Source: a virus. Taken from it: DNA of 35,129 nt. Shown piece after piece: positions 16,028-35,105 of this stretch. The DNA lies in IMG/VR virus record IMGVR_UViG_3300046471_000052, positions 1 through 35,129 of that record, one strand, 5' to 3'. The stretch's first letter is position 1; the number at the start of each line of letters is the position of its first letter. The position numbers and the translations under genes are program-made. A model generated the notes under the pieces. That model made no database searches and was not told where the DNA came from. It saw only the letters and a program-made list of their open reading frames with translations.

Positions 16028-16519
16028 GTGACTGACTACGAGCCTACTGGCTTCTACAAGGAAATCGCCGCCCGAATCCGCGGCCACCTTGCCCGATTTG
16101 AGATCAATCAGGCCGACTTAGCCGTGCTCTGCGACGTCTCACAATCGCAGTTCTCGAAGATCATTCGCGGCGTCCGCCCGATGACCATCGACCAGCTCGT
16201 CGTAATCTGCGAGGCCATCGGAATGAACATGAACACGTTGATGGAGGACGTCTACAAGTTCGTCTCGGAGCGAAGCCTCCAGTCCTCGCCGATCCACTAC
16301 GTCATCGAAGAGGAGCGCGAGCCCAACCCCACACTCGTTGACGAGAAGTGGCTCGACCCGTGGGGAGTTCAAGCCCGCCGCCGGATGCTGCTAGGTGACG
16401 ACAACGTCATCCAGGGGTCGTTCGGTGTCGGTGGCAAGGCGGACACTGAGGAAGACGGGCTCAGGGCGGTCGCGAAGAAGAAATCCGAAGACCGCGGGAC
16501 CACACCGGAAGAGACATGA
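16028..16519 (+). CDS. Immunity repressor, XRE family
   Basis: 163 residues, GTG start at 16028 with no clear ribosome site, so the mRNA may be leaderless or weakly translated. An XRE helix-turn-helix spans residues 12-70 (FEINQADLAVLCDVSQSQFS, KIIRGVRPMTIDQLVVICEA). The C-terminal part (75-163) is charged and not a LexA/S24 protease. It is followed by an ImmA-type metallopeptidase with ATGA overlap, the classic repressor/anti-repressor-protease pair of ICEBs1 and related phages. There, the peptidase cleaves the repressor after DNA damage. It would hold the early promoter silent in the lysogen. Confidence 0.85.
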   Translation: MTDYEPTGFYKEIAARIRGHLARFEINQADLAVLCDVSQSQFSKIIRGVRPMTIDQLVVICEAIGMNMNTLMEDVYKFVSERSLQSSPIHYVIEEEREPNPTLVDEKWLDPWGVQARRRMLLGDDNVIQGSFGVGGKADTEEDGLRAVAKKKSEDRGTTPEET

Positions 16520-16968
16520 TCGACGATTACATCTACGAGGCCATCGCCGTCCTCGGTGTCCGCATCGTGTACACGGACCTTCCCCCTGATCGTGATGGAG
16601 AGTATCTGCACCGCCGGAAGCTGATCCGGTTGCAGATCGGCATGGAGCACCGGCTGCACCGTTGCGTCCTCGCGCACGAGTGCTGTCATGCGGTCTTCGA
16701 GGATGTGACGAGCAAGTTTGGGCCTGTCAACGCGAAGCAGGAGCGTCGTGCGGACGAGTGGGCGGCGCTGAGACTTGTCTCCCTGACCGACTACATGCGG
16801 GCCGAGATCATCCACGGCGGACACGAGGGGGCGATCGCGGTCGAGTTGAACGTGACGGTCGACTTGCTGCGGGTGTTCAGGAGCATGCTCCTCGTCGTCG
16901 GCGAGCGGACGTACGTGCAGCCGCGGATGGGCGCCGGGCAGTGGCTCCACCGGAAGTTGCAGCCGTGA
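16516..16968 (+). CDS. ImmA/IrrE-family metallopeptidase
   Basis: 150 residues with the zinc motif HECCH (His54, Glu55, His58) in CVLAHECCHAVFED and a downstream KQERRADEWAA helix that supplies the third ligand. In ICEBs1 and several phages, ImmA cuts the repressor encoded beside it and thereby induces the element. Here the start overlaps the repressor stop (ATGA), which supports such a pairing. The two Cys inside the zinc motif are unusual but do not replace ligands. Confidence 0.88.
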   Translation: MIDDYIYEAIAVLGVRIVYTDLPPDRDGEYLHRRKLIRLQIGMEHRLHRCVLAHECCHAVFEDVTSKFGPVNAKQERRADEWAALRLVSLTDYMRAEIIHGGHEGAIAVELNVTVDLLRVFRSMLLVVGERTYVQPRMGAGQWLHRKLQP

Positions 16969-16979
16969 AAGTACTGGAT
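16968..16979. repeat. AAGTACTGG-type motif, copy upstream of integrase
   Basis: AAAGTACTGGAT, starting at the last base of the ImmA-like stop codon and 19 bases before the integrase ATG. The 11-base core AAGTACTGGAT recurs right after the integrase gene. Probably an integrase arm-type site or a self-regulation site. Confidence 0.5.
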
Positions 16980-16998
16980 CGAGAGGTAGAATTGACTC

Positions 16999-18126
16999 AT
17001 GCCTAGACCGCAATTGATCCTCGAGACGTGGGGCAACATTCGCCGTGCGACGGTCGATGGTCAGCCGGTCGCGTACGCGTACTACCGGGACTCGCGGGGG
17101 AAGCGCCGCCAGATCCAGCGGAATGGGCGCACCGAGCCTGAGGCGGAACGGAACCTCGTCAAGGCGCTGAAGGCTATGGCGGGTGAGACCGCCGACCTTC
17201 TCTCGGGTGACTCCACGATCTCGGCTCTGGCAGACAAGCATCTCGAAGAACTCAAGCTCAAGAACGCGGTTGCGGGGACGTACAACACGTACCGGACGGC
17301 GATCGAGGGGAAGATCAAGCCGGGCATCGGTGACCTGAGGCTTTCGGAGGCGACGGTGCCTCGGCTGGACCGGTTCGTGAAAAGCCTGATTGCCACTCCG
17401 TCGCAGGCGCGCACCGCTCGCACTGTCCTGATCGCCATGTTCAACCTCGCCGTCAGGCAGGGGGCGGTGGCACGGAACCCAGTCAAGGACACGATGCCGA
17501 TCAGCGCAGGCAAGCGGGTCGTGAAAGTCATCGCACTGGAAGACATCCACGCGATGCGCGGGTTGTTCACGGACTACGACAAGAAGCACACGTCCGAGCT
17601 GCGCGAGCTGTCCTCGATGCTCATGGCGACCGGATGCCGCATCGGTGAAGCGTTGGCGATCCGGTGGGAGGACATCGACCTCGACGCGGGCGTGCTCCGG
17701 GTGACCGGGACACTCTCGACGGACTCGGATTCCGGGAAGCTGTTCCGACAGGATCACCCGAAGTCCGATGCGGGGCACCGTGGTCTGACGCTCCCCTCGA
17801 CGTTGCTGGACGCCCTCGTGGCACGCAGGGTGGGTGCCGAGTTCGAGATGGTTTTCCCGTCCTCTACAGGGACGTACCGCTGGCCGGCGAACACGCGCCG
17901 TCAGTGGCGTGACGCGATCTCCGATTCGATCTACAAGGGCAAGACTCCCAGGGACTTCCGCAAGGCCGTGGCGACGCATCTAGACCGACAGGTGGGGATC
18001 AAGGCGGCGCAGGCACAGCTCGGTCACGGGTCTGAGGAGATCACTGTGAGGTACTACGTGGAGCGGCAGAAGGAGATCGCGGATTTCGCCGGAGTCATCG
18101 ACTCCATGTTTGAAAGTGCTGGATAA
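16999..18126 (+). CDS. int: Phage integrase, tyrosine recombinase
   Basis: 375 residues: arm-binding N-terminal domain (1-60), SAM-like core-binding domain (65-165), catalytic domain (175-370). Catalytic Arg214 lies in MATGCRIGEALAIRW, Arg321 in TPRDFRKAVATH, His343 in LGHGSEEIT, and Tyr352 or 353 in VRYYVER. The first His of the HxxR box is Arg318 here, a known variation in some actinophage integrases but worth noting. It recombines attP with a host attB; attP is recognised 77-114 bases downstream. Ribosome site GAGAGG precedes ATG 16999. It lies 30 bases after the ImmA-like gene and may share the repressor transcript. Confidence 0.93.
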   Translation: MPRPQLILETWGNIRRATVDGQPVAYAYYRDSRGKRRQIQRNGRTEPEAERNLVKALKAMAGETADLLSGDSTISALADKHLEELKLKNAVAGTYNTYRTAIEGKIKPGIGDLRLSEATVPRLDRFVKSLIATPSQARTARTVLIAMFNLAVRQGAVARNPVKDTMPISAGKRVVKVIALEDIHAMRGLFTDYDKKHTSELRELSSMLMATGCRIGEALAIRWEDIDLDAGVLRVTGTLSTDSDSGKLFRQDHPKSDAGHRGLTLPSTLLDALVARRVGAEFEMVFPSSTGTYRWPANTRRQWRDAISDSIYKGKTPRDFRKAVATHLDRQVGIKAAQAQLGHGSEEITVRYYVERQKEIADFAGVIDSMFESAG

Positions 18127-18633: not shown

Positions 18634-18739
18634 AAGTTATGTAAACCGGGACGTGTAAAGAATCGGCGCGAAAGTTGGAACGTTGCGGTGACGTGCCAAT
18701 CCGGTTTGCATGTCCCCACTCCCTGGCATCCTCAACCCC

Positions 18740-18979
18740 ATGCCAAGAGGTCAAGGCCCGCGTGGTGGCGACGAGCGTGCGTTCGCATACATCGACAAGG
18801 TCAACGTGGGGCTCGAGTTGACCTATCTGCGGTCGGGGTCTGATCCGGATTGGGAGCGGCCGCACATCAACGGGGTCGACGTCACAGGCTCCCCAGAACT
18901 CTGGTCCCCGTATCAGCGGGCACGTCGGGAAGCGTTCGTGGAACGGGTCGAGGCGTACCGGGCTGACGGGCTCCTGTAA
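18740..18979 (+). CDS. Hypothetical protein, 79 residues, orphan plus-strand gene
   Basis: Starts MPRGQGPRGGDERAFAYIDK (an in-frame ATG at 18710 would add ten residues). Residues 25-60 carry VGLELTYLRSGSDPDWERPH and DVTGSPELWSPYQ; the C-terminus is a charged helix. No family recognised. It diverges from the DUF3263-like gene and runs into a strong terminator, so it is its own transcription unit and a candidate for expression from the prophage. Neither start has a good ribosome site. Confidence 0.55.
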   Translation: MPRGQGPRGGDERAFAYIDKVNVGLELTYLRSGSDPDWERPHINGVDVTGSPELWSPYQRARREAFVERVEAYRADGLL

Positions 18980-22056: not shown

Positions 22057-22195
22057 CGGATGCTCCTGTCTGCCGCACGACCTGTGCGGTGATCTGCTCG
22101 GTGCAATGCGGACACGTGATGAAAACCGTGGTGGGGAAGCCACCGAACGCGGGCTCGAAACGAACCCGCCAACGGTGACCCCACCACCGGAGCAT
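22028..22195 (-). CDS. Small CPHC protein, 55 residues
   Basis: Begins MLRWWGHRWRVRFEPAFGGF and has one FITCPHCTEQIT knuckle at about residues 26-37. It overlaps the start of the tail fibre gene by 29 bases and follows the holin-like gene by two bases. No family known. The ribosome site is weak. Confidence 0.55.
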   Translation of the reverse strand: MLRWWGHRWRVRFEPAFGGFPTTVFITCPHCTEQITAQVVRQTGASDDSGHPHRP

Positions 22196-22197
22196 GA

Positions 22198-22431
22198 CTA
22201 GCTCTTGGGGATGTTCGGGGTGGTGACCGCGAGACCGAAGATGGCCGCGAGGTACGCGTACCCGACCGTGACCGGGATGGTGATGGCCGAGATGTCGAAC
22301 GCCGGGGTGGAAGCATCCACGACGGTTGCGGTGCCGACGATGAGGCCGACGACGCCGAGGGCGATGTTCGCCGCCTTCCGCACCTTCGGGTTCGCGACGA
22401 CGATGTTGGGGGTTTCGCTGGGAGTGCTCAT
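22198..22431 (-). CDS. Holin-like membrane protein, 77 residues
   Basis: Two predicted membrane helices: residues 19-38 (KAANIALGVVGLIVGTATVV) and 50-68 (AITIPVTVGYAYLAAIFGLA). A polar N-terminus and short C-terminus give class II holin topology. Located three genes after the endolysin. Similar small proteins are often annotated as holins in actinophages. One of two candidates in this cassette. Confidence 0.65.
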   Translation of the reverse strand: MSTPSETPNIVVANPKVRKAANIALGVVGLIVGTATVVDASTPAFDISAITIPVTVGYAYLAAIFGLAVTTPNIPKS

Positions 22432-22769
22432 GTTCGTTCCTTTCGGGGTTTCGATTCGAGCTCGAGCGGGATCTCACCGGAGCGCCAGTTGCGCCACAGC
22501 ACCCACACGAGACGCCAGATGGTCACGGCGACACCGATGTACACGACAATCCGCACCCACTCCCGGAACGGGTAGTCGGTGCCAGCGAACCTGGCGATCG
22601 TGTTGTTCGTGAACACGACGATCAGCGACCACACGAAGTACATGAGCGCCCGACCCGCAGCGGTCTTCCGCCAGTTGAAGAAGAACGAGTACGACACCGC
22701 GAAAACGATCGCGCCGACCGCGGCGGCGATCATGATCAGGTCTCCAAGGAAGAGGATCACTTCAGTCAT
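22428..22769 (-). CDS. Membrane protein, lysis cassette, 113 residues
   Basis: Three hydrophobic segments: residues 5-30 (ILFLGDLIMIAAAVGAIVFA), 41-58 (ALMYFVWSLIVVFTNN) and 72-92 (VRIVVYIGVAVTIWRLVWVL), then a basic tail (SKPRKERT). Conserved-type membrane protein of actinophage lysis regions, where it is called holin or simply membrane protein. Holin or holin regulator is plausible. Confidence 0.7.
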   Translation of the reverse strand: MTEVILFLGDLIMIAAAVGAIVFAVSYSFFFNWRKTAAGRALMYFVWSLIVVFTNNTIARFAGTDYPFREWVRIVVYIGVAVTIWRLVWVLWRNWRSGEIPLELESKPRKERT

Positions 22770-22980
22770 TGGCGGTCCTCCTGGTGAACGAGATCTGGAT
22801 GGAGTCGCCGAAATGGTTCAGGCGCCGCCGCTCCGCGAGGTAGCCGGTGAGACGCGCAACAGTGGGCGCGCGATTCACTACATGCTCCGCTTGCGCTTCG
22901 ATCTCCCGACGCATCTGCTGCGCTTCTCCCACGTCGTCAGGGACTGACGTCGTCGGCTTGGTGAACGGCCATGCCATCAC
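22762..22980 (-). CDS. DUF7620-like small protein, 72 residues
   Basis: Starts MMAWPFTK (GTG at 22980 or ATG at 22977). A helical centre (AQQMRREIEAQAEHVVNRAP, LTGYLAERRRLNHFGDS) ends in IQISFTRR. The last segment, HFGDSIQISFTRR, is typical of a small protein found beside holins in many actinophages (recalled as DUF7620). Role unknown; it has no membrane segment of its own. Confidence 0.7.
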   Translation of the reverse strand: MMAWPFTKPTTSVPDDVGEAQQMRREIEAQAEHVVNRAPTVARLTGYLAERRRLNHFGDSIQISFTRRTAND

Positions 22981-23279
22981 GCACCCCCAGGGGTCGTGTC
23001 CTCATCGAGGTCCGGCTGGGAAGATCGGAGCACTGCACGCACCGTCCGCGACCCTTCGAGGAGTTCGGTGTTCTGACGAGTGATCTCACTGTTCAGCCGG
23101 CGACTGTCGAGCGCGGTCTCTTTCCACTCATCGCCACGCTTGTTCGCGGTCTCCAGTTCGCGTTCATGCGACGACCTCGGGATGAGGCGACCGACCGCGA
23201 GCAGGTAGTAGAAGAAAGCGACAACACCGATACCGAACCCGATCGGCGTGAGCGACCAGAGACCTGGCAGCTCGATCAC
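22977..23279 (-). CDS. Single-pass membrane protein with coiled coil (spanin- or holin-like), 100 residues
   Basis: GTG start overlapping the endolysin stop. One membrane helix (residues 10-31, LTPIGFGIGVVAFFYYLLAV) is followed by a charged coiled coil (SSHERELETANKRGDEWKET). A single N-terminal anchor with a coiled coil next to endolysin resembles class III holins or Rz-like proteins. A Gram-positive host would not need a spanin, so a holin or regulator is favoured. Confidence 0.65.
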   Translation of the reverse strand: MIELPGLWSLTPIGFGIGVVAFFYYLLAVGRLIPRSSHERELETANKRGDEWKETALDSRRLNSEITRQNTELLEGSRTVRAVLRSSQPDLDEDTTPGGA

Positions 23280-24121
23280 GACACGGTCGTCTTGAACGTG
23301 GCCTCCGCAAGCGCGTCCTTCACCGCCTGCTTGACCACGGCGGCGTCCTGAGCGGCGTCGATCTTGCCGAGCGCGGCGGCAAGCGCTGCGGTATCGACCG
23401 TGGCGTTCACTGGCGGATTCACGGCCAGGAGGTACGCGCCTGTGACGTCGAGCTCGGCCTCGAGCATGACGTCCACTGGGTCGTTCTTCCTCTGTCGCTG
23501 CAGGAGTGTCACGTGGTAGGGCGATCCGATGTGTGCCCGCTTGCCGGTGACGAGGGAGACGAGCATGATCTTGCCGTCCGTGGTGTTGATGATCGAGTAG
23601 GACATGTCTTCTTCCTCCGGTTCAGGGGTGAATTCGGTTTCTTCGGTGAAAGCGGGGACGGCGCCGAATGCGGCGAAGTCGATGTAGTGCCACCGCTCAC
23701 CACCACTGATCCCTGACATGGCCTCGGTGATCTGCTGGACCGCGAACCCAGCCGCAGACATGGCCTCGTCAACCTGATCCCAGGTGAGCCCGTTCGGGTC
23801 GACGTCTACTGCCAGGCAGTCGCGTCCGTTCCAGTTGCCACCGTGGGACGATGACCCCGCCACGGCGGCACCCGCACAGTTGCCCGCCGCGCACGCGTTC
23901 GCACGCGCGACCCGCTGTGATGCGATCGGCCGATAAATATTCCACCCGGTGCGGATGAAGATCGTCCGACCGAAATGTTTCAGCGCGTACGCCTTCGCGA
24001 ACGCCCACCGGGCTGCGAACGCCGGGGTGCACCGGAACTCCCAGTACCCGTTCTCGTCCGTCCCTGAGGCGAGCACCACGGACACGACCGCGTCTGGTAC
24101 GTACCCGTTCGAATAGGTCAC
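23276..24121 (-). CDS. Endolysin, M15-type peptidase
   Basis: 281 residues, GTG start overlapping the upstream stop. The first 160 residues are a D-Ala-D-Ala carboxypeptidase/L-Ala-D-Glu peptidase (M15) domain. His93 in SSHGGNWNGRDCLAVDVDP and Asp106 or 108 form the zinc site with His145, and GERWHYID supplies Glu142 and His145. It cuts stem peptides of peptidoglycan at lysis. The C-terminal 110 residues are acidic then beta-rich (TTDGKIMLVSLVTGKRAHIG) and probably bind the cell wall. No signal peptide, so a holin is needed for export. No lysin B follows. Confidence 0.85.
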   Translation of the reverse strand: MTYSNGYVPDAVVSVVLASGTDENGYWEFRCTPAFAARWAFAKAYALKHFGRTIFIRTGWNIYRPIASQRVARANACAAGNCAGAAVAGSSSHGGNWNGRDCLAVDVDPNGLTWDQVDEAMSAAGFAVQQITEAMSGISGGERWHYIDFAAFGAVPAFTEETEFTPEPEEEDMSYSIINTTDGKIMLVSLVTGKRAHIGSPYHVTLLQRQRKNDPVDVMLEAELDVTGAYLLAVNPPVNATVDTAALAAALGKIDAAQDAAVVKQAVKDALAEATFKTTVS

Positions 24122-24774
24122 GCTCCCACCCGCCTGACGTCGAGTGCGGTGGTGATCGCGGTGGCTACCGCGGCGACAGTGGACCCGCCAGCGGCGGCGA
24201 TCTTGAACGTCTGCCCGACCGTGAAGCGCGTGAGCGCTTCAGCGACGAGACCCGTGTAGGCGGTCGTGTTGGTGACGCCGTACCCCTGACGGAACACGGA
24301 TCCTGCTTTGTAGATGTTGACGGAGACGGATGCGGCGGCCACGTTGGTCGCGGTGAGGAACGCGCTGATGCTGTACAGACCCGCGACAGAGCATGTGAAG
24401 GTGATGCGGTCTGACGTGGTGAACCCGGCGAGGGTGCCCTCCAGCGGTACGGAGTCCCACGCGACATCCTGCGGGCCGGTCGTGAAGTTGAGGGCAGCCG
24501 TGCGGCGATAGGAGAAGTAGATCGGGGCGTCCCAGCGGAGACCAGTGGTCTGCGTGGAGTCTGCAACGAGCGCCGCACCGTTCGCCCCCACAGCGAGACG
24601 AGCGACCGTGTCGGCAGCGGTCCCGACGATCATGTCACCCTTGGCATCCACGAGAGTGCGGCTCATGTACCGGCCGTCGAGCGCGGTGAGCATCGTAGTT
24701 GGCGGGAGCCCGGTCGCGAGGTCTTGGAGCGGAACGCCGAAACCTGCGGGGATCGTGATGGGGAAGGTAGCCAT
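24118..24774 (-). CDS. Minor tail protein with C1q-like domain
   Basis: 218 residues from ATG 24774 (AGGAGG eight bases upstream). Residues 40-85 have the common phage-tail segment DGRYMSRTLVDAKGDMIVGT and AVGANGAALVADSTQTTGLR. Residues 88-200 resemble a C1q/TNF jelly roll (LAGFTTSDRITFTCSVAGLY, SISAFLTATN). Such domains trimerise at the tip of tails and bind host surfaces. It follows the tail-tip gene by 11 bases and precedes endolysin. Confidence 0.75.
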   Translation of the reverse strand: MATFPITIPAGFGVPLQDLATGLPPTTMLTALDGRYMSRTLVDAKGDMIVGTAADTVARLAVGANGAALVADSTQTTGLRWDAPIYFSYRRTAALNFTTGPQDVAWDSVPLEGTLAGFTTSDRITFTCSVAGLYSISAFLTATNVAAASVSVNIYKAGSVFRQGYGVTNTTAYTGLVAEALTRFTVGQTFKIAAAGGSTVAAVATAITTALDVRRVGA

Positions 24775-24785
24775 GGGTGCGCCTC

Positions 24786-25886
24786 CTACAGCGGTTCGCT
24801 GGACTGTGCGCGAATGGTCATCGTCAGCTCTCCACCACTGGGGAAGCTCCACTCGATCGCACGAATATTTCCGGTGAGCACGCGGTCGCGGAGAACTACC
24901 TCCACAGCGTCGCCGGGGTCAATGTCGAGGCGGGCGCGAGCGGTGATGGTGAGGTCGTAGCCGCGTGTGACGGTGCGGGACTGGATGCCCTTGGCAGGCT
25001 CACCGCCAGGGTTTGCGCGGTCGAACGTGAGCATGAGGCCCTTGGTGTTCTGACCGGGCTGCGGGTAGCGGTTGAAGCTGACCGTGCCCCCTGCACCAAG
25101 TGTCGAGGTGGTGTCGTATTTGGTCACCACCCCGTCTGCCCAGTCCCCATCCCGGCTGACGTTCTCCACCACGGAGTACACGATGGGGTCAGCGTCTTCG
25201 GGTGCGCCTTCTGGCTGCGTGTACGCCGCAAGTCTGACTGTCCTGCCGGTCTGGGCGTTACGCGCGCCGACATGCCAACTGGTACCCCACTCCGAGTAGA
25301 GGCGGCAATTGATCGCGTCGAGCTCGGGCTTCAGAACATCGATGAACGATTCCCCACAGTTGTGGAGGCGACGCTCGAACGAGTCGATCGTCGTGTCCTG
25401 CACGATCGCCTCACTATTGAGGCTGTAGCTGCCGAAGACTTCCAGGAGCGCGTAGATGACGAGGTCGTAGACGGTCGCGGCGCCGGTGTCGAAGCCAGTC
25501 ACGGGATACAGCAACAGCTTGTCTTGCATCATCGACTCGGGGCCGGCGAGTTGAATCGTGACAGGTCCACCCATGTAGTCGCGGGAGACGGATCGGACGT
25601 ACAGCGATGCGGCGAGCGATGCGATCGTGACACCTGCGGTCGTCTTCTGCGTAACGGAGAAGGCGACCTGCTGACCCGCCGTGCCCCCTGGTGCGATGCG
25701 AGGGTCGAGTGCCGCCCACTGAATCGCATCGCATGCGGCGAGGGTGACCGTCGCGACCGCCCAATTCACGCGGTCCTGGTCGGCGCTGAACGTGATGGAA
25801 TCCACGTCGAGGGCGTCCGACCCTCCGCCGTAAACGATCGACGCCGTGTACTCGTACGTCACTTCAACCGGGCTGATCGTGGTCAC
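24786..25886 (-). CDS. Tail-tip (Tal-like) minor tail protein
   Basis: 366 residues; GTG at 25886 overlapping the distal-tail stop (GTGA). Beta-rich throughout (VTYEYTASIVYGGGSDALDV, ASLYVRSVSRDYMGGPVTIQ), with a central helical insert (SFERRLHNCGESFIDVLKPE). The final part, DIDPGDAVEVVLRDRVLTGN, is the kind of OB-like module found in baseplate hub proteins. Position after the distal tail gene and before the fibre-type proteins supports a tail-hub role. Confidence 0.75.
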   Translation of the reverse strand: MTTISPVEVTYEYTASIVYGGGSDALDVDSITFSADQDRVNWAVATVTLAACDAIQWAALDPRIAPGGTAGQQVAFSVTQKTTAGVTIASLAASLYVRSVSRDYMGGPVTIQLAGPESMMQDKLLLYPVTGFDTGAATVYDLVIYALLEVFGSYSLNSEAIVQDTTIDSFERRLHNCGESFIDVLKPELDAINCRLYSEWGTSWHVGARNAQTGRTVRLAAYTQPEGAPEDADPIVYSVVENVSRDGDWADGVVTKYDTTSTLGAGGTVSFNRYPQPGQNTKGLMLTFDRANPGGEPAKGIQSRTVTRGYDLTITARARLDIDPGDAVEVVLRDRVLTGNIRAIEWSFPSGGELTMTIRAQSSEPL

Positions 25887-26299
25887 GATTGGATCTCCTT
25901 GAAAGGGACGGTGAGGGTCCACATGTCGGCCTCGGCCTGGTCGATCCGAAACTGGCCGTCAGCGACCGCAAACAGGAGGTCGAAGGTGTCGTCGATTGCG
26001 CCGTTCCAGACGATGACGTTGCCGACGATGGAGTAGCCGGTGGTATCGGTGACGGGTCCGTTGAATTGATAGGAAGACGCCTCGCCGAAGTAGGCGATTC
26101 CTGAGACGGCGTCCGCGTAAGACGCGAGAAGCAACTGCAGTTCTCCCGTGCGCAGCGTCTGCGGGATGTATGTGACGCGCACCGAGGATGACTGCAGTAG
26201 AGGCCGCACGACGTTGCGGGATTCGACCGCATTGGCATAAGGCCCGAAAACCATGATCGGGGTTAGCGTGGCGGAGTCGGTCGTGCGCGTGAAAGTCAT
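25883..26299 (-). CDS. Distal tail protein
   Basis: 138 residues from ATG 26299, which overlaps the tape-measure stop (ATGA); the GTG at 26305 is an alternative. Beta-rich (FTRTTDSATLTPIMVFGPYA, SSVRVTYIPQTLRTGELQLL). Small beta-sandwich proteins directly after the tape measure form the ring that joins tail tube and tip (Dit). Assigned mainly by position and size. Confidence 0.7.
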   Translation of the reverse strand: MTFTRTTDSATLTPIMVFGPYANAVESRNVVRPLLQSSSVRVTYIPQTLRTGELQLLLASYADAVSGIAYFGEASSYQFNGPVTDTTGYSIVGNVIVWNGAIDDTFDLLFAVADGQFRIDQAEADMWTLTVPFKEIQS

Positions 26300-27549
26300 T
26301 CCCACAACACCTGTCCGGTTGGGGCGTAGTTCACGCCAACGGTGAAGTCCCTTTGCAGGCGAGCACGCGCCGCGTCCGCCTGCGATGTGTCAGCACGGAA
26401 GACGACGGTGGACACGACGGTCCCGGGGATGGAGTTAACGTCGCCCTTGAATGCGCCGACATCTGCAACCGCCTGCCCCGTTACGGCGTCAACAACGACG
26501 GTCGCACCAGAAGGGAGCGTGTAAAGCTCATTGCCGAACTCGTCGACCTGCACCGTCGCGGTGCCCGCATCTTCCAGCACCTGTTTCAACGCGTCGGAGT
26601 AGTCCCTCGCGGACTGGGAAGCACTGCCCTGGATGCCGGTCTGTTCCTCAAGAATTCTAGAAAGGTTACCGACCGCAACGGATTCTTCACCGATCTCGGT
26701 CTTGCGCCTACCCGTGTTGTTCGTCGCGGCGAACGACGCATCACCGAGCGCTCGTTCACGACTCTCGAGGATCTCCTGTGCAGTCGCGAGGGCCCCGCTG
26801 TCCCCAGCGAGAACACGGAGAGCAAGCGCTCGATCGCCCAGGGCCTGAGTGAGATCCGCGAGGTTCTGCTTCTCGGCCGGATCTACAGTGGTCGCGATGT
26901 CACCGATTCGGCTAGCAATGTCCATCTCGTTCAGAACCGTCGTGCCTGCCTGTATGTACGCCTTCGCGAGATCAGATGCCTTCTCCTCAAGGGCTTTGCG
27001 CTTCTCCTCCGCGGTGCCAAACAGGGCAGTGCCAATGCCGATGCCCGCTGCGGCGGCGAGTCCCAAGGCGGCGCCGCCGGGCCCGAACCCCGCGAATGCG
27101 TTAGCCGCGAGTTCCTGGAAGCCGCCGACAATCGACTCCACGGAGCCATCGAACGATGCGCCGACCTCTCGAGCGGTCGAATTTCCTTCGGTCCCGAACT
27201 CCTCAAGGCCGGCCTTCGCCTTGTCCATGCCCTTCTTGGTGTCGTCTCCCGCGTCGCGACCCGTGTCGCCCACCTTCTGCAGCGACTTCCGTGCGTCGTC
27301 TGCTTCGTCATCCAGATCGTCGACTGCATCCGCCGCCTTGCCGACCTCACGGCGGACCTCCTCAAATGGGCGCCCATTGATCTTCGAAAGATCCCGCGCG
27401 ATGTCGTCGTTAGACTTGCCAAGGTCATGGCCGACATCGACCAGCTTCTCCATATCCGAAGCGGTTTCATCGAACGCGCTTCCCAGTTTTCGCACCTGGG
27501 AAACCGCGGCTTCGGTGTTCGCCTTGACGTCCACGGATAGCTCAGACAC
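26296..27549 (-). CDS. Tail tape-measure protein (short)
   Basis: 417 residues, GTG start with GAGGAGG upstream. The N-terminal two thirds are coiled coil (VRKLGSAFDETASDMEKLVD, AGDDTKKGMDKAKAGLEEFG). A hydrophobic Gly/Ala-rich segment follows near residue 150-180 (AFAGFGPGGAALGLAAAAGI), then more helices and a compact C-terminus. This is the usual tape-measure layout but at the low end of siphovirus sizes. At roughly 0.15 nm per residue, a tail near 60 nm would be expected. No frameshifted chaperone pair is seen upstream. Confidence 0.85.
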   Translation of the reverse strand: MSELSVDVKANTEAAVSQVRKLGSAFDETASDMEKLVDVGHDLGKSNDDIARDLSKINGRPFEEVRREVGKAADAVDDLDDEADDARKSLQKVGDTGRDAGDDTKKGMDKAKAGLEEFGTEGNSTAREVGASFDGSVESIVGGFQELAANAFAGFGPGGAALGLAAAAGIGIGTALFGTAEEKRKALEEKASDLAKAYIQAGTTVLNEMDIASRIGDIATTVDPAEKQNLADLTQALGDRALALRVLAGDSGALATAQEILESRERALGDASFAATNNTGRRKTEIGEESVAVGNLSRILEEQTGIQGSASQSARDYSDALKQVLEDAGTATVQVDEFGNELYTLPSGATVVVDAVTGQAVADVGAFKGDVNSIPGTVVSTVVFRADTSQADAARARLQRDFTVGVNYAPTGQVLWE

Positions 27550-27605
27550 GCGGCCTCCTCACTGGGCTATTCGTCAGCGCGGCACCCTTGTGGGATGATC
27601 CGGGA

Positions 27606-27842
27606 ATGACGAACAAGGTTGTGCTCTGGGTCGGCGGCGTGATCACCGCACTCCTGATCGCTGTCGTGGTCGTCGTACTGGTGCTGGTGAACACGCTCAA
27701 CACCCAGGCCGAGAACGACTCCTACCAGGAGTGCATGGCGTCTATGGGGTTCGAACGAGGAGCGGCCCCGGAGATGCCCAAGGGGGGCATCGAGGAATAC
27801 GCGAAGTCGGCTGCTGAGGCCGCCGAGTTCTGTAGCCGCTAG
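27606..27842 (+). CDS. Membrane-anchored small protein on the opposite strand (moron)
   Basis: 78 residues. Residues 5-30 are one strong membrane helix (VLWVGGVITALLIAVVVVVL). The outer part, residues 35-78, is polar with two Cys (YQECMASMGFERG, AAEFCSR) that could form a disulfide outside the cell. It is the only plus-strand gene within the late operon, inserted between the tape-measure gene (divergent) and the gp10-like gene (tail to tail, four-base overlap). GATGAT lies six bases before the ATG, so a leaderless transcript is possible. Position and topology fit a lysogenic-conversion or superinfection-exclusion gene; the function is inferred. Confidence 0.75.
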   Translation: MTNKVVLWVGGVITALLIAVVVVVLVLVNTLNTQAENDSYQECMASMGFERGAAPEMPKGGIEEYAKSAAEAAEFCSR

Positions 27843-28315
27843 CCTTCGATCGTGTCATTGATACTGACGCCCAACGCTTCGGTCCACGCCTTCGCGAGCT
27901 TCGGGACGATCGCTTTCACCGCGGGAGCGAACACGTAACCGGTCTTCTTGTACGTCCGGAACTGTCGCGTCGTGTGACGGGTCACCGCGTGCGAGCCACC
28001 CTTACGCGAGCGTCGTTTGTAGGTGGACTTCTTCTCCCGAGTCGCGCCGTACTCAGCCGGCCCAGAAAGGAACGCGAGGCTCCCCGACTTGCCAGCTTCG
28101 AGGCGGATGCCGTTCTCGATAACCGTCGCCGTGCCCGTAGAACCGATGGTCCGCTTTTCCAACTTCGTGGAAGCGCTCCTTGCAAGGAGACGCTTCCACT
28201 CCGGTTCGATCGTCTTCGTCGATTCCTCGATCTGCTTCGACAGAACCGCCTCAATCCCCTGCAGCCGCTTACCGGCCCCGGAGAATTGTGATGCGTCAAC
28301 GTCGAGGAACGCCAT
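27839..28315 (-). CDS. HK97 gp10-like tail or head-tail protein, 158 residues
   Basis: Starts MAFLDVDASQFSGAGKRLQG; the helix EESTKTIEPEWKRLLARSA and the basic stretch REKKSTYKRRSRKGGSH recall the HK97 gp10-like tail-completion family. In most phages this gene comes before the major tail protein gene; here it follows it. The long upstream frame is a shadow of the major tail gene. Confidence 0.65.
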   Translation of the reverse strand: MAFLDVDASQFSGAGKRLQGIEAVLSKQIEESTKTIEPEWKRLLARSASTKLEKRTIGSTGTATVIENGIRLEAGKSGSLAFLSGPAEYGATREKKSTYKRRSRKGGSHAVTRHTTRQFRTYKKTGYVFAPAVKAIVPKLAKAWTEALGVSINDTIEG

Positions 28316-28317
28316 GG

Positions 28318-28737
28318 TTACGCGACAGTGCGGACGGGCTTGCCCTGCACGCCGAGCGTCACGGACGCGACAGCGACCGAGTCGACAGTGCCACCGATCG
28401 CACCAGGCGTGATGATGACCGTCGCCGTCCACGTCGGAGCCGTGCCAGTAGCGGGCTTCTTCGGCTTGAACGTGATCACCTTCGACGTGCCCTCGTTGTC
28501 GAACAGGTACTGCGACAGGCTGGATGTGGTCGCCCAGTCCTGCGCGTACGCGAGGTTCAGAACCCACGTCGCCGTCGTACCGAACGTGAACACGGAAGCC
28601 GGCGTGAGGCCCTTCCAGTTCACCTGAGACGACGACGGAACGAACTCCACCTGGGAGACGTGCGCCTCGTAGTTGTCGGTCGCCACAGTGAGGACGACGT
28701 CGTTGAGGATGATGGGGACGAGCACGGGTGATGCCAT
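28318..28737 (-). CDS. Major tail (tube) protein
   Basis: 139 residues from ATG 28737. Beta-rich with VPIILNDVVLTVATDNYEAH, VEFVPSSSQVNWKGLTP, VLNLAYAQDWATTSSLSQYL and a C-terminal strand VASVTLGVQGKP, consistent with a tail-tube subunit. Placed between the terminator-like gene and the tape measure. Small for the family but within range. Confidence 0.8.
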   Translation of the reverse strand: MASPVLVPIILNDVVLTVATDNYEAHVSQVEFVPSSSQVNWKGLTPASVFTFGTTATWVLNLAYAQDWATTSSLSQYLFDNEGTSKVITFKPKKPATGTAPTWTATVIITPGAIGGTVDSVAVASVTLGVQGKPVRTVA

Positions 28738-28739
28738 GA

Positions 28740-29114
28740 CTAGCTCACTTTCTGGGCGAAGACGGGGAAGGAAATGCGATACGCGAACTGCTTGCCGTAG
28801 AGGAAGGCAGTTGCCGTTCCCTGCGGGTACCGGGGGTCGAGGTAGTCGAGGACGGTCGGGAGAAGGTCTTCGATCTGCTCGGCCCCGGCGTCGACGTCCG
28901 CCAGCGGTGAGACGAGCTCGAGCGTGACGGTGACGGTGCGGTGACTGTTCGGGGCCGCGGGGAACGGGGCCACTTCCTGTTGCGAGATGATCGCGGTCAC
29001 GCGTGAGAAGGCGGTGATCTCCGAAGCGGTCGCGACGACCCAGATGTCGGAAAGCTCGTCGTCCTCCGCCCAGTCCTCCGTAAACTGCTCCTCGAGGAAC
29101 TTGACGACCCTCAC
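28740..29114 (-). CDS. Tail terminator-like protein, 124 residues
   Basis: GTG at 29114 overlapping the connector stop (GTGA). The N-terminal helix (VVKFLEEQFTEDWAEDDEL), the strand pattern and LLPTVLDYLDPRYP match small minor-tail/terminator proteins (gpU-like) that close the tail at the head end. Three bases separate it from the major tail gene, a typical order. Confidence 0.7.
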   Translation of the reverse strand: MRVVKFLEEQFTEDWAEDDELSDIWVVATASEITAFSRVTAIISQQEVAPFPAAPNSHRTVTVTLELVSPLADVDAGAEQIEDLLPTVLDYLDPRYPQGTATAFLYGKQFAYRISFPVFAQKVS

Positions 29115-29569
29115 AGGGCATCCACCCCGCCCTCGAAAATCGGGTACCCGGCGATGTCGACACCGCATGAGCAGTACGCCGCACCGAAGTAGGCGGAGCA
29201 CCAGGGCAGGTGACTGGATGACCCTGACGCCATGTCGAGCGAGAAAGCCCCACTCGATCCGGTGAGCCCGAGCAGAGGCCACCAGTCCGCGATCGTGCGG
29301 AACGTGTACCCGTCCACGATCTGCGCATCCGTGTCCGTGTCACGCCGCTTCACCTGATCGACGACCACCTCACGGATGACGAAGTCGATCTTGGCTTGCA
29401 CCATGTCGGCGTCAGCGACACCGAGTGTGGTCGCACGATCCTGAATGAACATCAGGTTGTCGTCGATCCACATCTGCCACTGCTCCTCGGTGACGGACCC
29501 GGTGGGGGGTGCAGGCTGACCCAACGCGACGGCGATGTGCCACGGGTTGATGTTGGTTTCAAGAGCCAT
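29111..29569 (-). CDS. Head-tail connector protein, 152 residues
   Basis: Mostly helical N-terminal half (TEEQWQMWIDDNLMFIQDRA, MVQAKIDFVIREVVVDQVKR) as in gp6/gp15-type connectors, then a Gly/Ser-rich C-terminus with several Cys (HLPWCSAYFGAAYCSCGVDI). The connector joins the portal to the tail. The Cys-rich tail is unusual for the family. Confidence 0.7.
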   Translation of the reverse strand: MALETNINPWHIAVALGQPAPPTGSVTEEQWQMWIDDNLMFIQDRATTLGVADADMVQAKIDFVIREVVVDQVKRRDTDTDAQIVDGYTFRTIADWWPLLGLTGSSGAFSLDMASGSSSHLPWCSAYFGAAYCSCGVDIAGYPIFEGGVDAL

Positions 29570-29587
29570 CCCGCACCCCCTTCTCGG

Positions 29588-29740
29588 TTACTTCGTTGCC
29601 TTGGCCGCGGGCTTCGCGGCAGGCTTCTTCACGGTCGTCGCGGCGGAATCAGCGAACTCCCACTCGGGACCGAAGCGGGCGACCTTATCGTCGTCGACGT
29701 TCACGACCACGCTGTTCTGCGTGTTGCGGAGGCGAGCCAT
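29588..29740 (-). CDS. Small basic-tailed protein downstream of capsid, 50 residues
   Basis: Two bases after the capsid gene. The N-terminal half is beta-rich (TQNSVVVNVDDDKVARFGPE) and the C-terminus is Lys/Ala/Pro-rich (TVKKPAAKPAAKATK), like a histone tail. Small genes here in actinophages are usually unnamed head proteins. Possibly a head decoration or DNA-contacting protein; unproven. Confidence 0.65.
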   Translation of the reverse strand: MARLRNTQNSVVVNVDDDKVARFGPEWEFADSAATTVKKPAAKPAAKATK

Positions 29741-29742
29741 GA

Positions 29743-30663
29743 TCAGGCCGCGTTGATGACCTTGGCGAAGGCATCCGTGGAGAAGATGCCGATGCCGTAG
29801 ACGACCTCCGCGCGGATCGCGATCTGGTTCGCGCGCTTCAGGTCGCCGGAACCGTCCGGGTCGCCGTACTTGATGACCTCGAGCGGGATGTCGCGCTGCA
29901 CACCCCAGCGGAGACCGTTGGTGAAGTCACCGACGATCGCCTTGACGTTCGGGTTGACCGACGCGTACGCGCCGCCGCCGATCGTCGCCTCAGGCGCCGA
30001 CACAGTCGACGACGCCGCGGCCGACAGGCCGAAGACGTTGTCGATGTTGATGCCGAGCCCGAGCTCCGGGTACAGGCGCCGACCATCGGCGTCCTTGACC
30101 GTCGCGAGCGTGAACGCCCACGCCGGGTCGATCGCGACACCGTTCGGGGTGAACCCGTCCGCAAGGATGAGTCCCACCGCCGCCTCGAGGTCGTCGGTCG
30201 GCTTCGACGAACCGGTGATCTCCACCGAGTTCGTCGTGTCGACGAGCTTCACCGGCGAACCAGACAGCAGCACACCGGTGATGGGGTTGATGCCGTGGAT
30301 CGCGATCAGGTCGAGCGCGCGAGCCAGCGCGACCGCAGCGAGGTCGCCCATCGACGAAAGGACACCAAGCTGGTAGTCCTCATCGGCCCACTGGACCTCC
30401 TCGTTGAACCGCTGGGTTACCTGCACCTTGCGGGGGCTGACGGTCACGGTCGAGAAAGCCGGCTGCGACTGCGTCTTGTTTGCACCTTCCGCGACGACCT
30501 CACCCTTGGGAGCGGTCGTCAGCGTCATGTACTGGGTGTCGCCGAACAGCATCGGGGTCTGACCCGACAGCTTGGCGATTGCGGAACCGGTCTGAACCTT
30601 CTGCCACACACCGCTTGCGAGGTGCTTGGGCAGGGTCAGGCCACTCGTTGCGAGAGTTGCCAT
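29743..30663 (-). CDS. Major capsid protein, HK97 fold
   Basis: 306 residues. Typical late-start sequence TSGLTLPKHLASGVWQKVQT, the E-loop region TLTTAPKGEVVAEGANKTQS, then QVTQRFNEEVQWADEDYQLG and ALARALDLIAIHG (spine helix), ending SGDLKRANQIAIRAEVVYGI. This matches the HK97-type capsid of actinophages. It follows the scaffold gene by 19 bases and carries a clear ribosome site (AGGAGG). Confidence 0.9.
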   Translation of the reverse strand: MATLATSGLTLPKHLASGVWQKVQTGSAIAKLSGQTPMLFGDTQYMTLTTAPKGEVVAEGANKTQSQPAFSTVTVSPRKVQVTQRFNEEVQWADEDYQLGVLSSMGDLAAVALARALDLIAIHGINPITGVLLSGSPVKLVDTTNSVEITGSSKPTDDLEAAVGLILADGFTPNGVAIDPAWAFTLATVKDADGRRLYPELGLGINIDNVFGLSAAASSTVSAPEATIGGGAYASVNPNVKAIVGDFTNGLRWGVQRDIPLEVIKYGDPDGSGDLKRANQIAIRAEVVYGIGIFSTDAFAKVINAA

Positions 30664-30682
30664 GGTGTCCTCCTAGGACGGG

Positions 30683-31189
30683 TTAGTCGGAACCGCTGAA
30701 CAGGTTCTTCGCGTACTTACGCTCTTCCTGCTCGGTTGCAGTTCCATGGGTTTTGGATTCGCCCTCTTTTGGGGCGAGGTTGCCTGGCTTCTTGGATTCG
30801 GCCTGACGTGCGGCGAGGCGCTGCGCCTGCGCTGTCAGTGCTTCCTCATCGGCACCCGTGAGGAACAGGTCAGCGTCGGACGGATCGCCGTCTTTGCCGG
30901 GTTCGGTCGAGATCCCGAAGCGTGCCGCGACACGCGAGCGGAGAGCCTCAGTCCGGGTGGACGTCAGTTCCTTCTCGAGGTTCGCGAGACGCTCCTCAGC
31001 GGTGACCGTTTGGCCGGCCTTTGCTTTGAGATCGTCGTAATCCGGGTAGCGCGAACGCGCGATCCGGTCGGCCCTCTGGGCGATCAACTGATCGACCTCG
31101 GCCTGTGTGAACGTCTTGCCCTGTTCCTGCTGCTGCTCGGCCTCGGTCGCGTCGGTCTCCGTCGCAACCTCAGTGGTGTCGTCAGTCAT
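30683..31189 (-). CDS. Capsid scaffolding protein
   Basis: 168 residues, highly charged and helical: acidic Gln/Glu-rich N-terminus (TEAEQQQEQGKTFTQAEVDQ), coiled coil ERLANLEKELTSTRTEALRS, and a basic C-terminus (ERKYAKNLFSGSD) that would bind capsid. Directly before the capsid gene as expected. The 93-base space before it (31190-31282) holds only a 22-codon frame without a ribosome site. Confidence 0.88.
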   Translation of the reverse strand: MTDDTTEVATETDATEAEQQQEQGKTFTQAEVDQLIAQRADRIARSRYPDYDDLKAKAGQTVTAEERLANLEKELTSTRTEALRSRVAARFGISTEPGKDGDPSDADLFLTGADEEALTAQAQRLAARQAESKKPGNLAPKEGESKTHGTATEQEERKYAKNLFSGSD

Positions 31190-31282
31190 GGTCGGTGCCT
31201 TCCGTTTCAGTGCCGTCGCACATGCACCGCGAATCCGTCGCGTACGGCCACACGCATATGAGCGTGGAAGTTCATGCCCGAA

Positions 31283-31948
31283 TCAGTCCGGGAAGTAGGT
31301 GGCGACGTAGTCGCGAACGCGCGCTTTCTGTGCTGGCGTCTTCGACCGCTTCGATCCCAGGTATTGGATGACGGAAGCCTCAGGGCCGTCGTCGTCGCGG
31401 AACGCGGGGCGGGCGGTGCAGTCGCAATGCCCATGAGCGGCGAATATCGCCGTATCCCGCTTGTACACGGCACCGCGGCCGGCCAGCATCCGGCAGAATC
31501 CGCAGGAGTCACCCGCAACGCGCGCCCACCCGACAGAGTCAGGATCACGTCGCGAGTTCAACGTGATCGTGTCCCTGTAAGGGCGTGCGACCTCGTTCTG
31601 TACAACCTCCGCGAGCCGTGTCGCCGTGGTCACGTTCGAGCCGTCAGCAGGTGCTTGCGCCGCCCATGCAACCGCGTTACGGATCTTCTCCGTCCGGTCC
31701 ACAACCACCGGTTCAGCGCGAAACCACTTCTTCGTGTCCGCCAGGTCGCGGAGATCGTCGAACAAGTCAGCGGCGAGAGCGGAGGAACCATCCGTGAACA
31801 GCGAGATCAGCCACGGCACCGCCTCGAGCAGTTGCGCGAGGATCTGCTGTGGTGTCCCCGTCAACCCAGCGATGAGCGCACGTGTGGACTGGTCCGCGTT
31901 GAACGTCAGAATCCGCAAAGCCGCTTGGGATTCAAGCGCTGACGGCAT
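31283..31948 (-). CDS. MuF-like minor head protein
   Basis: 221 residues overlapping the portal end by 17 bases. The C-terminal GDSCGFCRMLAGRGAVYKRD, followed by FAAHGHCDCTARPAF, is the Cys/His signature of phage Mu gpF-like head morphogenesis proteins in actinophages. These proteins are packaged or act in head maturation. The first 120 residues are helical. Confidence 0.85.
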   Translation of the reverse strand: MPSALESQAALRILTFNADQSTRALIAGLTGTPQQILAQLLEAVPWLISLFTDGSSALAADLFDDLRDLADTKKWFRAEPVVVDRTEKIRNAVAWAAQAPADGSNVTTATRLAEVVQNEVARPYRDTITLNSRRDPDSVGWARVAGDSCGFCRMLAGRGAVYKRDTAIFAAHGHCDCTARPAFRDDDGPEASVIQYLGSKRSKTPAQKARVRDYVATYFPD

Positions 31949-33365
31949 CAGCCTGCGGCGCTACGGCAGTCGCCTGAGCGGTTGCGATCTGTGGCAGAGC
32001 AGCGACCAGAGCCCGCCCGGACGCACGGCGGCGGTCGGCGAGAGCACGCTTGATCTGCTGGTCATCAAGGCCGAGGAGCTCGAGCCCCACCTCGGTCTCG
32101 GCAAGCCACGGCACCGCGGAGATCTGCTTCGTCCCCGCGTCAGCCTGAGCCGCACGGGACAGATGCACAGGGTTCCGCCACTTCGTGTCGATCGACGCCC
32201 ACTCGGCCGGAATCTGCTCGAGCCCGTTTTGCATCGCCAGCGCACGGGTCACCGCGCGGCGGATCGGAACAGACCACCCATCGGTGGCGTCCTCAGCCTC
32301 CGCGACGAGCGACTCACGTGCCTCCGAGTAGGAGTCCGCCGACGTCGGGTTCGCCATGTCCGTTAGCGCGAAGTCCGCGTCGGACATGTCCGTCTCCCGC
32401 GCCATCAGCTTCGCGAGCGCGTTCAGGTGCGCGAGGTGCGGCTCAGGGGACGACGCCTCGAACTGCTGCGCAGTGGCACGCTGGTTCGCCTGATCCTTGT
32501 CGAGGCTGTCGGGGATACCGAACGCCCGACCGAGAGCGATCTGCCACGACGCCTTCATGGAACCATCAGGGTTCGTGAACACCGACTCGTCCGCACCGAG
32601 GAGGATCAGCTTCGGGATCGCATAGATGTCCATGTGCGCCTCGAGTCGCACGAGCGCCCGCAGAGCGGAGTCCTGGTGCGACATCACCGGGCGGCTGATC
32701 CGAGACCGCCCCATGCGACGTGACGTGCGCGGCCGGTACACAAGTGGGTCGACCGGCACATGCCACGGGTGCTCCGACCGGTCGACGTACCACTGGTCGT
32801 CGATGAAGTCAGCGTTGATCGTGACCCCGTCGAGGTACAGCACGAACCCGGTGATCTTGCCCTTGGTGCGAGCCGTCACCGAGAGGAGGTTGTCGAGGCG
32901 ACGCTTCCGCGAGTTCCACTCACCCGTCGCGTTCAACGCATCCTTCGCGTGCACCAGCGCCGCCGGCTCACCCTCAGATTCGTCACCGCGAGTCGTGATC
33001 AGAAACGACGTACCATGCAGAAGCGAATCGGTGCGCGCCTGCGACACCTCCGCCATCAGGAAGTTCGAGTCCACCAACTGCTGCATGCCCAAAGACCCGA
33101 GGTCACCGTCAGCCCAGATCATCTTGTCGAGCACGCACCGACGACCCAGACCGTCGACACCCTTCGCCGCCCACCCGAGCGCGAGACCGAGCTTCGCGTA
33201 CTGCGGCGGGATGACCGTCCCGATCTTCTTCACTGCCTGACGGCCGTCGTAATACGACGACCGCAGAAGGTTCCGCGGCGTGTGCTCATCGAGTTGCATG
33301 ATGAGCGAGTTGAGCGTGACGGTCTCCTCGTCGGAGAGATCCGGGATCAGCAGCGAATCGGTCAC
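31932..33365 (-). CDS. Portal protein, SPP1 gp6-like
   Basis: 477 residues. N-terminal ETVTLNSLIMQLDEHTPRNL with YYDGRQAVKKIGTVIPPQYA is the usual actinophage portal start; the wing and stem region includes SRISRPVMSHQDSALRALVR and the crown has NPTSADSYSEARESLVAEAE. It forms the dodecameric ring through which DNA enters and leaves. Four-base overlap with the large terminase gene. Confidence 0.93.
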   Translation of the reverse strand: MTDSLLIPDLSDEETVTLNSLIMQLDEHTPRNLLRSSYYDGRQAVKKIGTVIPPQYAKLGLALGWAAKGVDGLGRRCVLDKMIWADGDLGSLGMQQLVDSNFLMAEVSQARTDSLLHGTSFLITTRGDESEGEPAALVHAKDALNATGEWNSRKRRLDNLLSVTARTKGKITGFVLYLDGVTINADFIDDQWYVDRSEHPWHVPVDPLVYRPRTSRRMGRSRISRPVMSHQDSALRALVRLEAHMDIYAIPKLILLGADESVFTNPDGSMKASWQIALGRAFGIPDSLDKDQANQRATAQQFEASSPEPHLAHLNALAKLMARETDMSDADFALTDMANPTSADSYSEARESLVAEAEDATDGWSVPIRRAVTRALAMQNGLEQIPAEWASIDTKWRNPVHLSRAAQADAGTKQISAVPWLAETEVGLELLGLDDQQIKRALADRRRASGRALVAALPQIATAQATAVAPQADAVSA

Positions 33366-34864: not shown

Positions 34865-35105
34865 CAGACTCCTCCTCAGCCTGCTGGCGCCTCAACGCCT
34901 CGATCTCCTTCGAGATCTCAATCTGCCGACGCGACAACGCAGCCAGATCACGAGGCGAAGTGTTTGCGTTGTCGCACGCTCGGGCGATCACACGACGCAA
35001 CTGGATTAGTTCATCCAGGCGGGAACCCTCATCAGCCGCCTCAAGAACCGAGGTGATCTTCTTGGAGGGCGTCTCGTTCGCCCCAACTGCACGCAGAGTC
35101 GCCAT
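34818..35105 (-). CDS. terS: Terminase small subunit
   Basis: 95 residues. A long helical hairpin (LDELIQLRRVIARACDNANT, LAALSRRQIEISKEIEALRR) and an acidic C-terminus (EEESDAANVADEAFDAEAI) fit the small terminase oligomerisation core. It recognises the packaging site on phage DNA. First gene of the late operon; AGGAGG precedes the ATG, which is 24 bases from the window edge. The N-terminal DNA-binding part is short. Confidence 0.8.
   Translation of the reverse strand: MATLRAVGANETPSKKITSVLEAADEGSRLDELIQLRRVIARACDNANTSPRDLAALSRRQIEISKEIEALRRQQAEEESDAANVADEAFDAEAI

What the first reader, a model, noticed from the sequence alone, without database searches (positions are those of the whole stretch)
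27606..27842. Inverted membrane-protein gene inside the tail operon
The only plus-strand gene among 20 late genes. It codes for one membrane helix and an external domain with two Cys, the topology of superinfection-exclusion or lysogenic-conversion proteins. Its promoter would have to lie in the 56 bases shared with the tape-measure leader.
Basis: partly seen in the sequence, partly recalled or inferred. Interest (0 to 1): 0.65.

Follow-up and report, generated by a model that had tools for sequence, protein, structure and literature searches.

The report
Reverse membrane moron beside tape measure
A temperate actinobacterial virus carries one extra small membrane-protein gene, pointing backwards, wedged just before its tail-length gene; many related viruses keep unrelated envelope-protein genes in that same spot, so it looks like a docking site for genes the dormant virus uses, probably to protect its host from other viruses.

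Summary
An ATG ORF at 27606-27842 (+, 78 aa) is the only plus-strand gene among 21 minus-strand late genes, and codon statistics support it in that frame alone. It has one N-terminal TM helix and a 45-residue outer part with Cys43 and Cys76. It is a private insertion: relatives sharing this tail module have the upstream gene and the tape measure gene (TMP) abutting, and none carries the insert. Its stop overlaps the upstream gene's stop (CTAG). A promoter-like site ends 6 nt before the ATG (extended -10, TCGTCA-17-GATGAT), so a leaderless mRNA is predicted. The phage encodes a repressor and integrases. The slot just before TMP is a hotspot. In 154 related loci, reverse genes occur in 11 of 111 pre-TMP slots against 4 of 1499 other slots (strict test). 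About 15 unrelated families occupy it, mostly TM proteins or lipoproteins, and 9 of 16 have a TAnnnT box 6-8 nt before the start codon. HK97 gp15, a known superinfection-exclusion moron, sits in the same slot. Best reading: a moron expressed from the prophage, probably an injection-blocking envelope protein. Moron status is well supported; exclusion is inferred. The protein has no detectable homologue.

The parts
27606..27842 (+). Moron gene: 78-aa protein, one N-terminal TM helix (~5-29), outer part with Cys43 and Cys76
   Evidence: no homologue found
27550..27838 (.). 289-bp insertion relative to all tail-module relatives
   Evidence: Gap between upstream gene and TMP is -8 to +8 in nearly all relatives (L136 +30; L113 +162, where the TMP frame itself opens at the junction), +289 here
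27591..27599 (+). Putative extended -10 element TGG-GATGAT; predicted +1 = A of the ATG (27606)
   Evidence: and direct reading; first base of the hexamer departs from TAnnnT
27571..27576 (+). Putative -35 element TCGTCA (4 of 6), 17-nt spacer
   Evidence: below the threshold of the standard scan
27554..27559 (-). Shine-Dalgarno AGGAGG of the tape measure gene, inside the shared 56-bp gap
   Evidence: read directly; the closest relative L096 keeps the same SD inside the end of the upstream gene
27839..27842 (.). CTAG: overlapping convergent stop codons of the moron (+) and the upstream tail gene (-)
   Evidence: the same 4-bp convergent overlap in about half of the pre-TMP reverse genes
26296..27549 (-). 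Tape measure gene, 417 aa, GTG start
   Evidence: PHROG tape measure hits, E 3.9e-6
27839..28315 (-). Tail gene upstream of TMP (158 aa, no family hit; conserved neighbour of MTP and TMP in relatives)
28318..28737 (-). Major tail protein, used to find relatives
   Evidence: phrog_4574, E 1.4e-12
16028..18126 (+). Lysogeny cassette: HTH repressor, M78 peptidase, tyrosine integrase (the main other plus-strand genes)

Best explanation
The gene is a moron: a self-contained one-gene insert (promoter plus ORF) placed backwards at the junction just before the tape measure gene of a temperate actinobacterial siphovirus. In the prophage, when the minus-strand late operon is silent, a host sigma-A-type promoter in the 56-bp gap makes a leaderless mRNA starting at the ATG. 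The protein inserts by its N-terminal helix with its C-terminal two-cysteine part outside the membrane. There it most likely interferes with DNA entry of other siphophages, in the manner of HK97 gp15 or TP-J34 Ltp, whose exclusion depends on the incoming tape measure protein. Shown here by sequence: the ORF is coding, the insertion is private, the promoter-like site exists, the phage encodes a repressor and integrases, and the slot is a hotspot for envelope-protein genes. Inferred: expression, topology in vivo, and exclusion. Confidence: moron with its own lysogenic promoter about 0.85; exclusion of other phages as the function about 0.4.
For: Codon statistics single out this frame. In relatives sharing the major tail, upstream and TMP genes, the two flanking genes abut and no locus has the insert. 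The phage has a repressor, an M78 peptidase and tyrosine integrases. Promoter-like TCGTCA-N17-TGG-GATGAT with +1 at the ATG: no other of 65 window genes scores as high at that position, random 1.3e-4. In 154 related loci reverse genes sit in 11 of 111 pre-TMP slots against 4 of 1499 other structural slots (Fisher 1e-10; looser count 19 against 6), in about 15 unrelated families. TM or lipoprotein in 11 of 16 against 37 of 1178 forward small genes (5e-13). TAnnnT 6-8 nt before the start in 9 of 16 against 0.6% of forward genes (6e-17). Seven of the eight occupied records of 29 kb or more besides the window encode a tyrosine integrase. HK97 gp15, annotated as a moron, lies between the chaperone and TMP genes; its exclusion is escaped by HK97 hybrids with HK022 tail tube and TMP genes, and TP-J34 Ltp exclusion is overcome by TMP changes (PMC10883804). 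Tab of JBD26 is a minus-strand late-operon moron with its own promoter that targets TMP (PMC10884400).
Against: No homologue of the protein was found anywhere searched, so function rests on topology and position. The -10 hexamer GATGAT lacks the first T of TAnnnT, the standard scan found no promoter, and the score used (with a bonus for TG) was chosen after seeing the site. There is no sequence similarity to HK97 gp15. Some occupants of the slot are soluble (L209, L211, L019) or include endonuclease VII and HTH genes, so the slot is not reserved for exclusion proteins. No expression data.
Confidence: 0.45

Rival explanations
1. Lysogenic-conversion moron with an envelope function unrelated to phage exclusion: a membrane-anchored surface protein that alters host envelope or stress fitness, placed before TMP only because that junction tolerates inserts.
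For: Occupants of the slot are diverse; several look like ordinary actinobacterial secreted proteins (DUF732 in L217, an Rv1352/Rv1906c domain in Gordonia phage ODay gp16). The slot also takes endonuclease VII (Phistory) and HTH genes (ODay).
Against: The strong bias to TM and lipoproteins next to TMP parallels known TMP-directed exclusion proteins; nothing links this protein to any host pathway.
Confidence: 0.35
2. Intracellular interference with virion assembly or packaging, as Tab of JBD26 does by targeting TMP, with the TM helix merely anchoring it.
For: Tab is a minus-strand late-operon moron that targets TMP.
Against: Assembly interference acts in the cytoplasm; this protein has a 25-residue very hydrophobic helix and its second half, with both Cys, is predicted outside. 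Tab comes with an anti-Tab gene in the late operon; none was seen here.
Confidence: 0.08
3. Neutral passenger: a recently inserted, expressed or silent ORF of no present function.
For: Private to this phage; no homologues; promoter is imperfect.
Against: Intact frame with phage-like codon usage; the slot pattern across relatives, including a 60-aa family kept at 46-74% identity in four loci, indicates selected functions for occupants.
Confidence: 0.1
4. Chance ORF, not a gene.
For: About 2% of random stretches of this length and composition hold an ATG ORF this long.
Against: Codon periodicity, exact stop overlap with the neighbour, no other gene in the 289 bp, TM architecture shared by other occupants of the slot.
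Confidence: 0.02

Closest known systems
HK97 gp15 superinfection-exclusion moron
   Same: Small predicted membrane protein; single-gene moron in the slot between the pre-TMP tail gene and the TMP gene; temperate phage.
   Different: Same orientation as the late genes and followed by a terminator in HK97, reversed here; no sequence similarity; Gram-negative host; exclusion shown for gp15, not here.
TP-J34 Ltp-type superinfection-exclusion lipoproteins
   Same: Membrane-tethered, outward-facing prophage protein; the class acts at DNA injection with TMP as target. Lipoproteins are common in the same slot in related phages.
   Different: Ltp is a lipoprotein encoded in the lysogeny module; this is a TM-anchored protein in the tail operon; no family match.
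Tab of Pseudomonas phage JBD26
   Same: Small protein on the opposite strand inside the late operon with its own promoter; defence targets TMP.
   Different: Located between terminase genes; acts on virion assembly; comes with an anti-Tab gene.
Pre-TMP lipoprotein genes of Gordonia Langleyhallvirinae (Kenna gp16, Spooky gp17, Malisha gp18)
   Same: Reverse-strand envelope gene in exactly the same slot; Kenna encodes an integrase.
   Different: Unrelated lipoprotein of about 265 aa; a tail assembly chaperone gene lies on the other side.
Corndog gp53 of Cluster O mycobacteriophages
   Same: Leftward gene inside the structural operon with a predicted leaderless promoter (PMC4351075).
   Different: DNA-binding protein, not an envelope protein; its position relative to TMP could not be checked here.

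Membership tests
Phage moron | Present in one phage, absent between the same two genes in relatives | tested here: met
   Flanking genes abut in relatives; 289-bp gap only here
Phage moron | Own promoter, expressed from the prophage | tested here: inconclusive
   Promoter-like site with +1 at the ATG; no expression data; strict scan found none
Phage moron | Own terminator (common but not required) | tested here: not met
   No intrinsic-terminator-like site in 27300-28400; stops overlap instead
Phage moron | Carried by a temperate phage | tested here: met
   Repressor, M78 peptidase and integrase genes
HK97 gp15 family | Sequence similarity to gp15 | tested here: not met
   No local alignment
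HK97 gp15-like in position and topology | Small membrane protein gene directly upstream of TMP | tested here: met
Superinfection-exclusion proteins | Expression alone blocks DNA entry of other phages | not testable with these tools
   Needs an infection assay
Ltp-type exclusion lipoproteins | Lipobox signal peptide | tested here: not met
   No Cys near the N-terminus; first Cys is residue 43 (direct reading)
Known defence families (PADLOC) / Pfam / NCBIfam / PHROGs | Profile match | tested here: not met
   No match above cut-off

The most novel reading that the evidence does not exclude
The junction before the tape measure gene is a general docking site in actinobacterial temperate siphophages, where unrelated reverse-oriented, leaderless envelope-protein genes are swapped in and out; adjacency to TMP keeps each exclusion gene recombining together with the TMP that must tolerate it, so occupants are TMP-directed entry blockers.
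Probability: 0.3. Interest if true: 0.75.

Novelty: new variant of a known kind. Interest (0 to 1): 0.55.

Why it matters
Single reverse genes in tail operons are usually annotated as hypothetical and passed over. Here one leads to a measurable rule: the pre-TMP slot holds such genes far more often than other structural slots, they are mostly envelope proteins, and many carry a -10 box placed for leaderless transcription. That gives a way to find candidate superinfection-exclusion proteins by position rather than similarity, and a direct test of whether exclusion genes and tape measure genes are inherited as matched pairs.

Tried and rejected
Homologue searches for the 78-aa protein: phages and plasmids by tblastn, IMG/VR, GTDB contigs, 8 host genomes at E<=1 and 400 genomes of the family of a Microbacterium: nothing credible. 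The TM plus two-Cys reverse genes of L103/L106 looked similar, but BLASTP E was 0.19 for a single comparison and they sit upstream of the terminase region, so homology is not claimed. Phrog hits of L062 to 'superinfection exclusion' models cover its TM and Thr/Pro-rich linker and were not used. Low-scoring reverse calls in L193, L194 and L203 (first ORF) lie over forward frames with better codon scores, probably chaperone frameshift regions, and were dropped by the strict test. A fold search was not run: a single-sequence model of a TM helix would give meaningless matches. A disulphide between Cys43 and Cys76 is possible but was not tested.

Full report
What is there. The window is a 35,129-bp virus record. 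A codon-based gene caller gives 21 minus-strand genes from 19066 to 35105 (terminase, portal, capsid, connectors, tail, lysis region) and one plus-strand gene inside them, 27606-27842. Elsewhere on the plus strand lie a repressor (HTH_26), an M78 peptidase and a tyrosine integrase (16028-18126) and one uncertain ORF at 18710-18979. The phage is therefore very probably temperate, and this gene shares its strand with the lysogeny cassette.

Is the ORF a gene? Length alone is weak evidence (about 2% by chance). Codon usage is decisive: GC by codon position .62/.41/.85, and +0.30 log-odds per codon in this frame against -0.75 to +0.02 in the other five; the neighbours score 0.22-0.46 in their own frames. 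Its stop overlaps the stop of the upstream tail gene in a CTAG, and no other gene fits in the 289 bp. The protein has one strongly hydrophobic helix, about residues 5-29, with a lysine before it (N-in expected by the positive-inside rule), and a C-terminal part with Cys43 and Cys76. The single-sequence AlphaFold model shows helices 2-46 and 61-77, pLDDT 81, pTM 0.43.

It is an insertion. A profile of the major tail protein found relatives in IMG/VR and in actinobacterial genomes (Microbacterium, Glaciihabitans, Salinibacterium, Cryobacterium, Leucobacter, Agreia, Mycetocola, Cellulomonas). In those with both flanking genes, the upstream gene and TMP abut: start-to-stop distance -8 to +8 in all but two (L136 +30; L113 +162 by first ATG/GTG, though its TMP frame opens at the junction). 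The window has +289. The closest relative by major tail protein, L096, carries the TMP Shine-Dalgarno GGAGGAGG inside the end of the upstream gene; the window keeps an equivalent AGGAGG on the TMP side of the insert, as expected of an insertion exactly at the junction.

Promoter. The 56-bp gap holds TCGTCA (27571-27576), a 17-nt spacer and TGG-GATGAT (27591-27599), with the predicted +1 on the A of the ATG and no Shine-Dalgarno at the usual distance. No other of 65 window genes scores as high at that position; random sequence does so at 1.3e-4. Caveats: the hexamer lacks the first T, the score was defined after seeing the site, and the standard scan found nothing.

The slot is a hotspot. Loci fetched with the major capsid protein were pooled with the tail-module relatives and de-duplicated to 154. 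Reverse genes were counted per slot between structural genes. A strict frame test gives 11 of 111 pre-TMP slots and 4 of 1499 others, odds ratio 41, Fisher 1e-10; two of the four others are transposase-like genes. The loose count is 19 against 6. Loci are related to each other, so the p-value is not to be taken literally, but the occupants fall into about 15 unrelated families, which argues for many separate acquisitions. Of 16 occupants, 11 are TM or lipoproteins, against 37 of 1178 forward genes of similar size. Nine of 16 have TAnnnT 6-8 nt before the start codon, against 0.6% of forward genes and 0.4% per position elsewhere upstream; the gene caller does not use this motif, although one start (L166) was moved to an in-frame upstream ATG before that count. 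So many occupants appear to carry their own leaderless promoters; the window's box is a one-base variant and is not among the nine. Seven of the eight occupied records of 29 kb or more besides the window encode a tyrosine integrase.

Annotated phages agree. Gordonia Kenna, Spooky, LitninMcQueen, Squiddly and Malisha have a reverse lipoprotein gene between the chaperone and TMP genes, with the start annotated too late in Kenna, Spooky, LitninMcQueen and Squiddly (lipobox upstream). Phistory has a reverse gene plus endonuclease VII there, and ODay a six-gene island beginning with a reverse lipoprotein. Mycobacterium phages Yoshi, Jolie2, GoldenAsh, prophi89-1 and Ogopogo and Gordonia Mayweather and Axym have an empty slot.

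Mechanism. HK97 gp15, annotated 'moron product', occupies the same slot, though in the forward direction. It is a predicted inner-membrane exclusion protein; HK97 hybrids with HK022 tail tube and TMP genes escape it, and TP-J34 Ltp exclusion is overcome by TMP changes (PMC10883804). Tab of JBD26 shows that a minus-strand late-operon moron with its own promoter can give constitutive defence aimed at TMP (PMC10884400). A predicted leaderless reverse gene in a structural operon is described for Corndog 53 (PMC4351075). By analogy I propose an outward-facing, membrane-anchored blocker of DNA entry. This step is inference: there is no homologue, no expression data and no infection test.

Novelty. 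Morons, and the HK97 gp15 position, are known. I found no paper in the searches made that describes the pre-TMP slot of actinophages as a docking site for reverse, leaderless envelope-protein genes; most subscription papers are not in that library, so this is not proof of novelty.

Noticed in passing
L154 9018-9707 (Gordonia phage Kenna gp16) and relatives: Annotated start is too late: in-frame upstream sequence MNRRLAIAAVCAAAACILSSC is a lipoprotein signal, so this family is a lipoprotein.
   Followed up: yes
L225 (Gordonia phage ODay) 2106-5061: Six-gene island between chaperone and TMP: lipoprotein, two divergent HTH genes and three further genes; resembles an immunity or early region inside the tail operon.
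   Followed up: partly
L103 1499-1705 and L106 1540-1740: Reverse TM genes with a short two-Cys tail and a TAnnnT-like box before the ATG, upstream of the terminase region; architecture like the window gene but homology not established.
   Followed up: partly
window 1402-2211 (-) and 16999-18126 (+): Two tyrosine recombinase genes in one 35-kb phage.
   Followed up: no
window 27839-28776: No recognisable tail assembly chaperone between major tail protein and TMP; a 158-aa protein of no known family holds that place throughout this group, and TMP is short (417 aa).
   Followed up: no
L155 8985-9134 (RitSun gp15): Annotated reverse gene overlies the chaperone frameshift region, which the related phage Yoshi annotates as one frameshifted gene; probably an annotation artefact.
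   Followed up: no
L030, L214, L215, L216 pre-TMP slot: A conserved 60-aa two-TM protein family ending WLIIKAAKS/G occupies the slot in four loci.
   Followed up: partly
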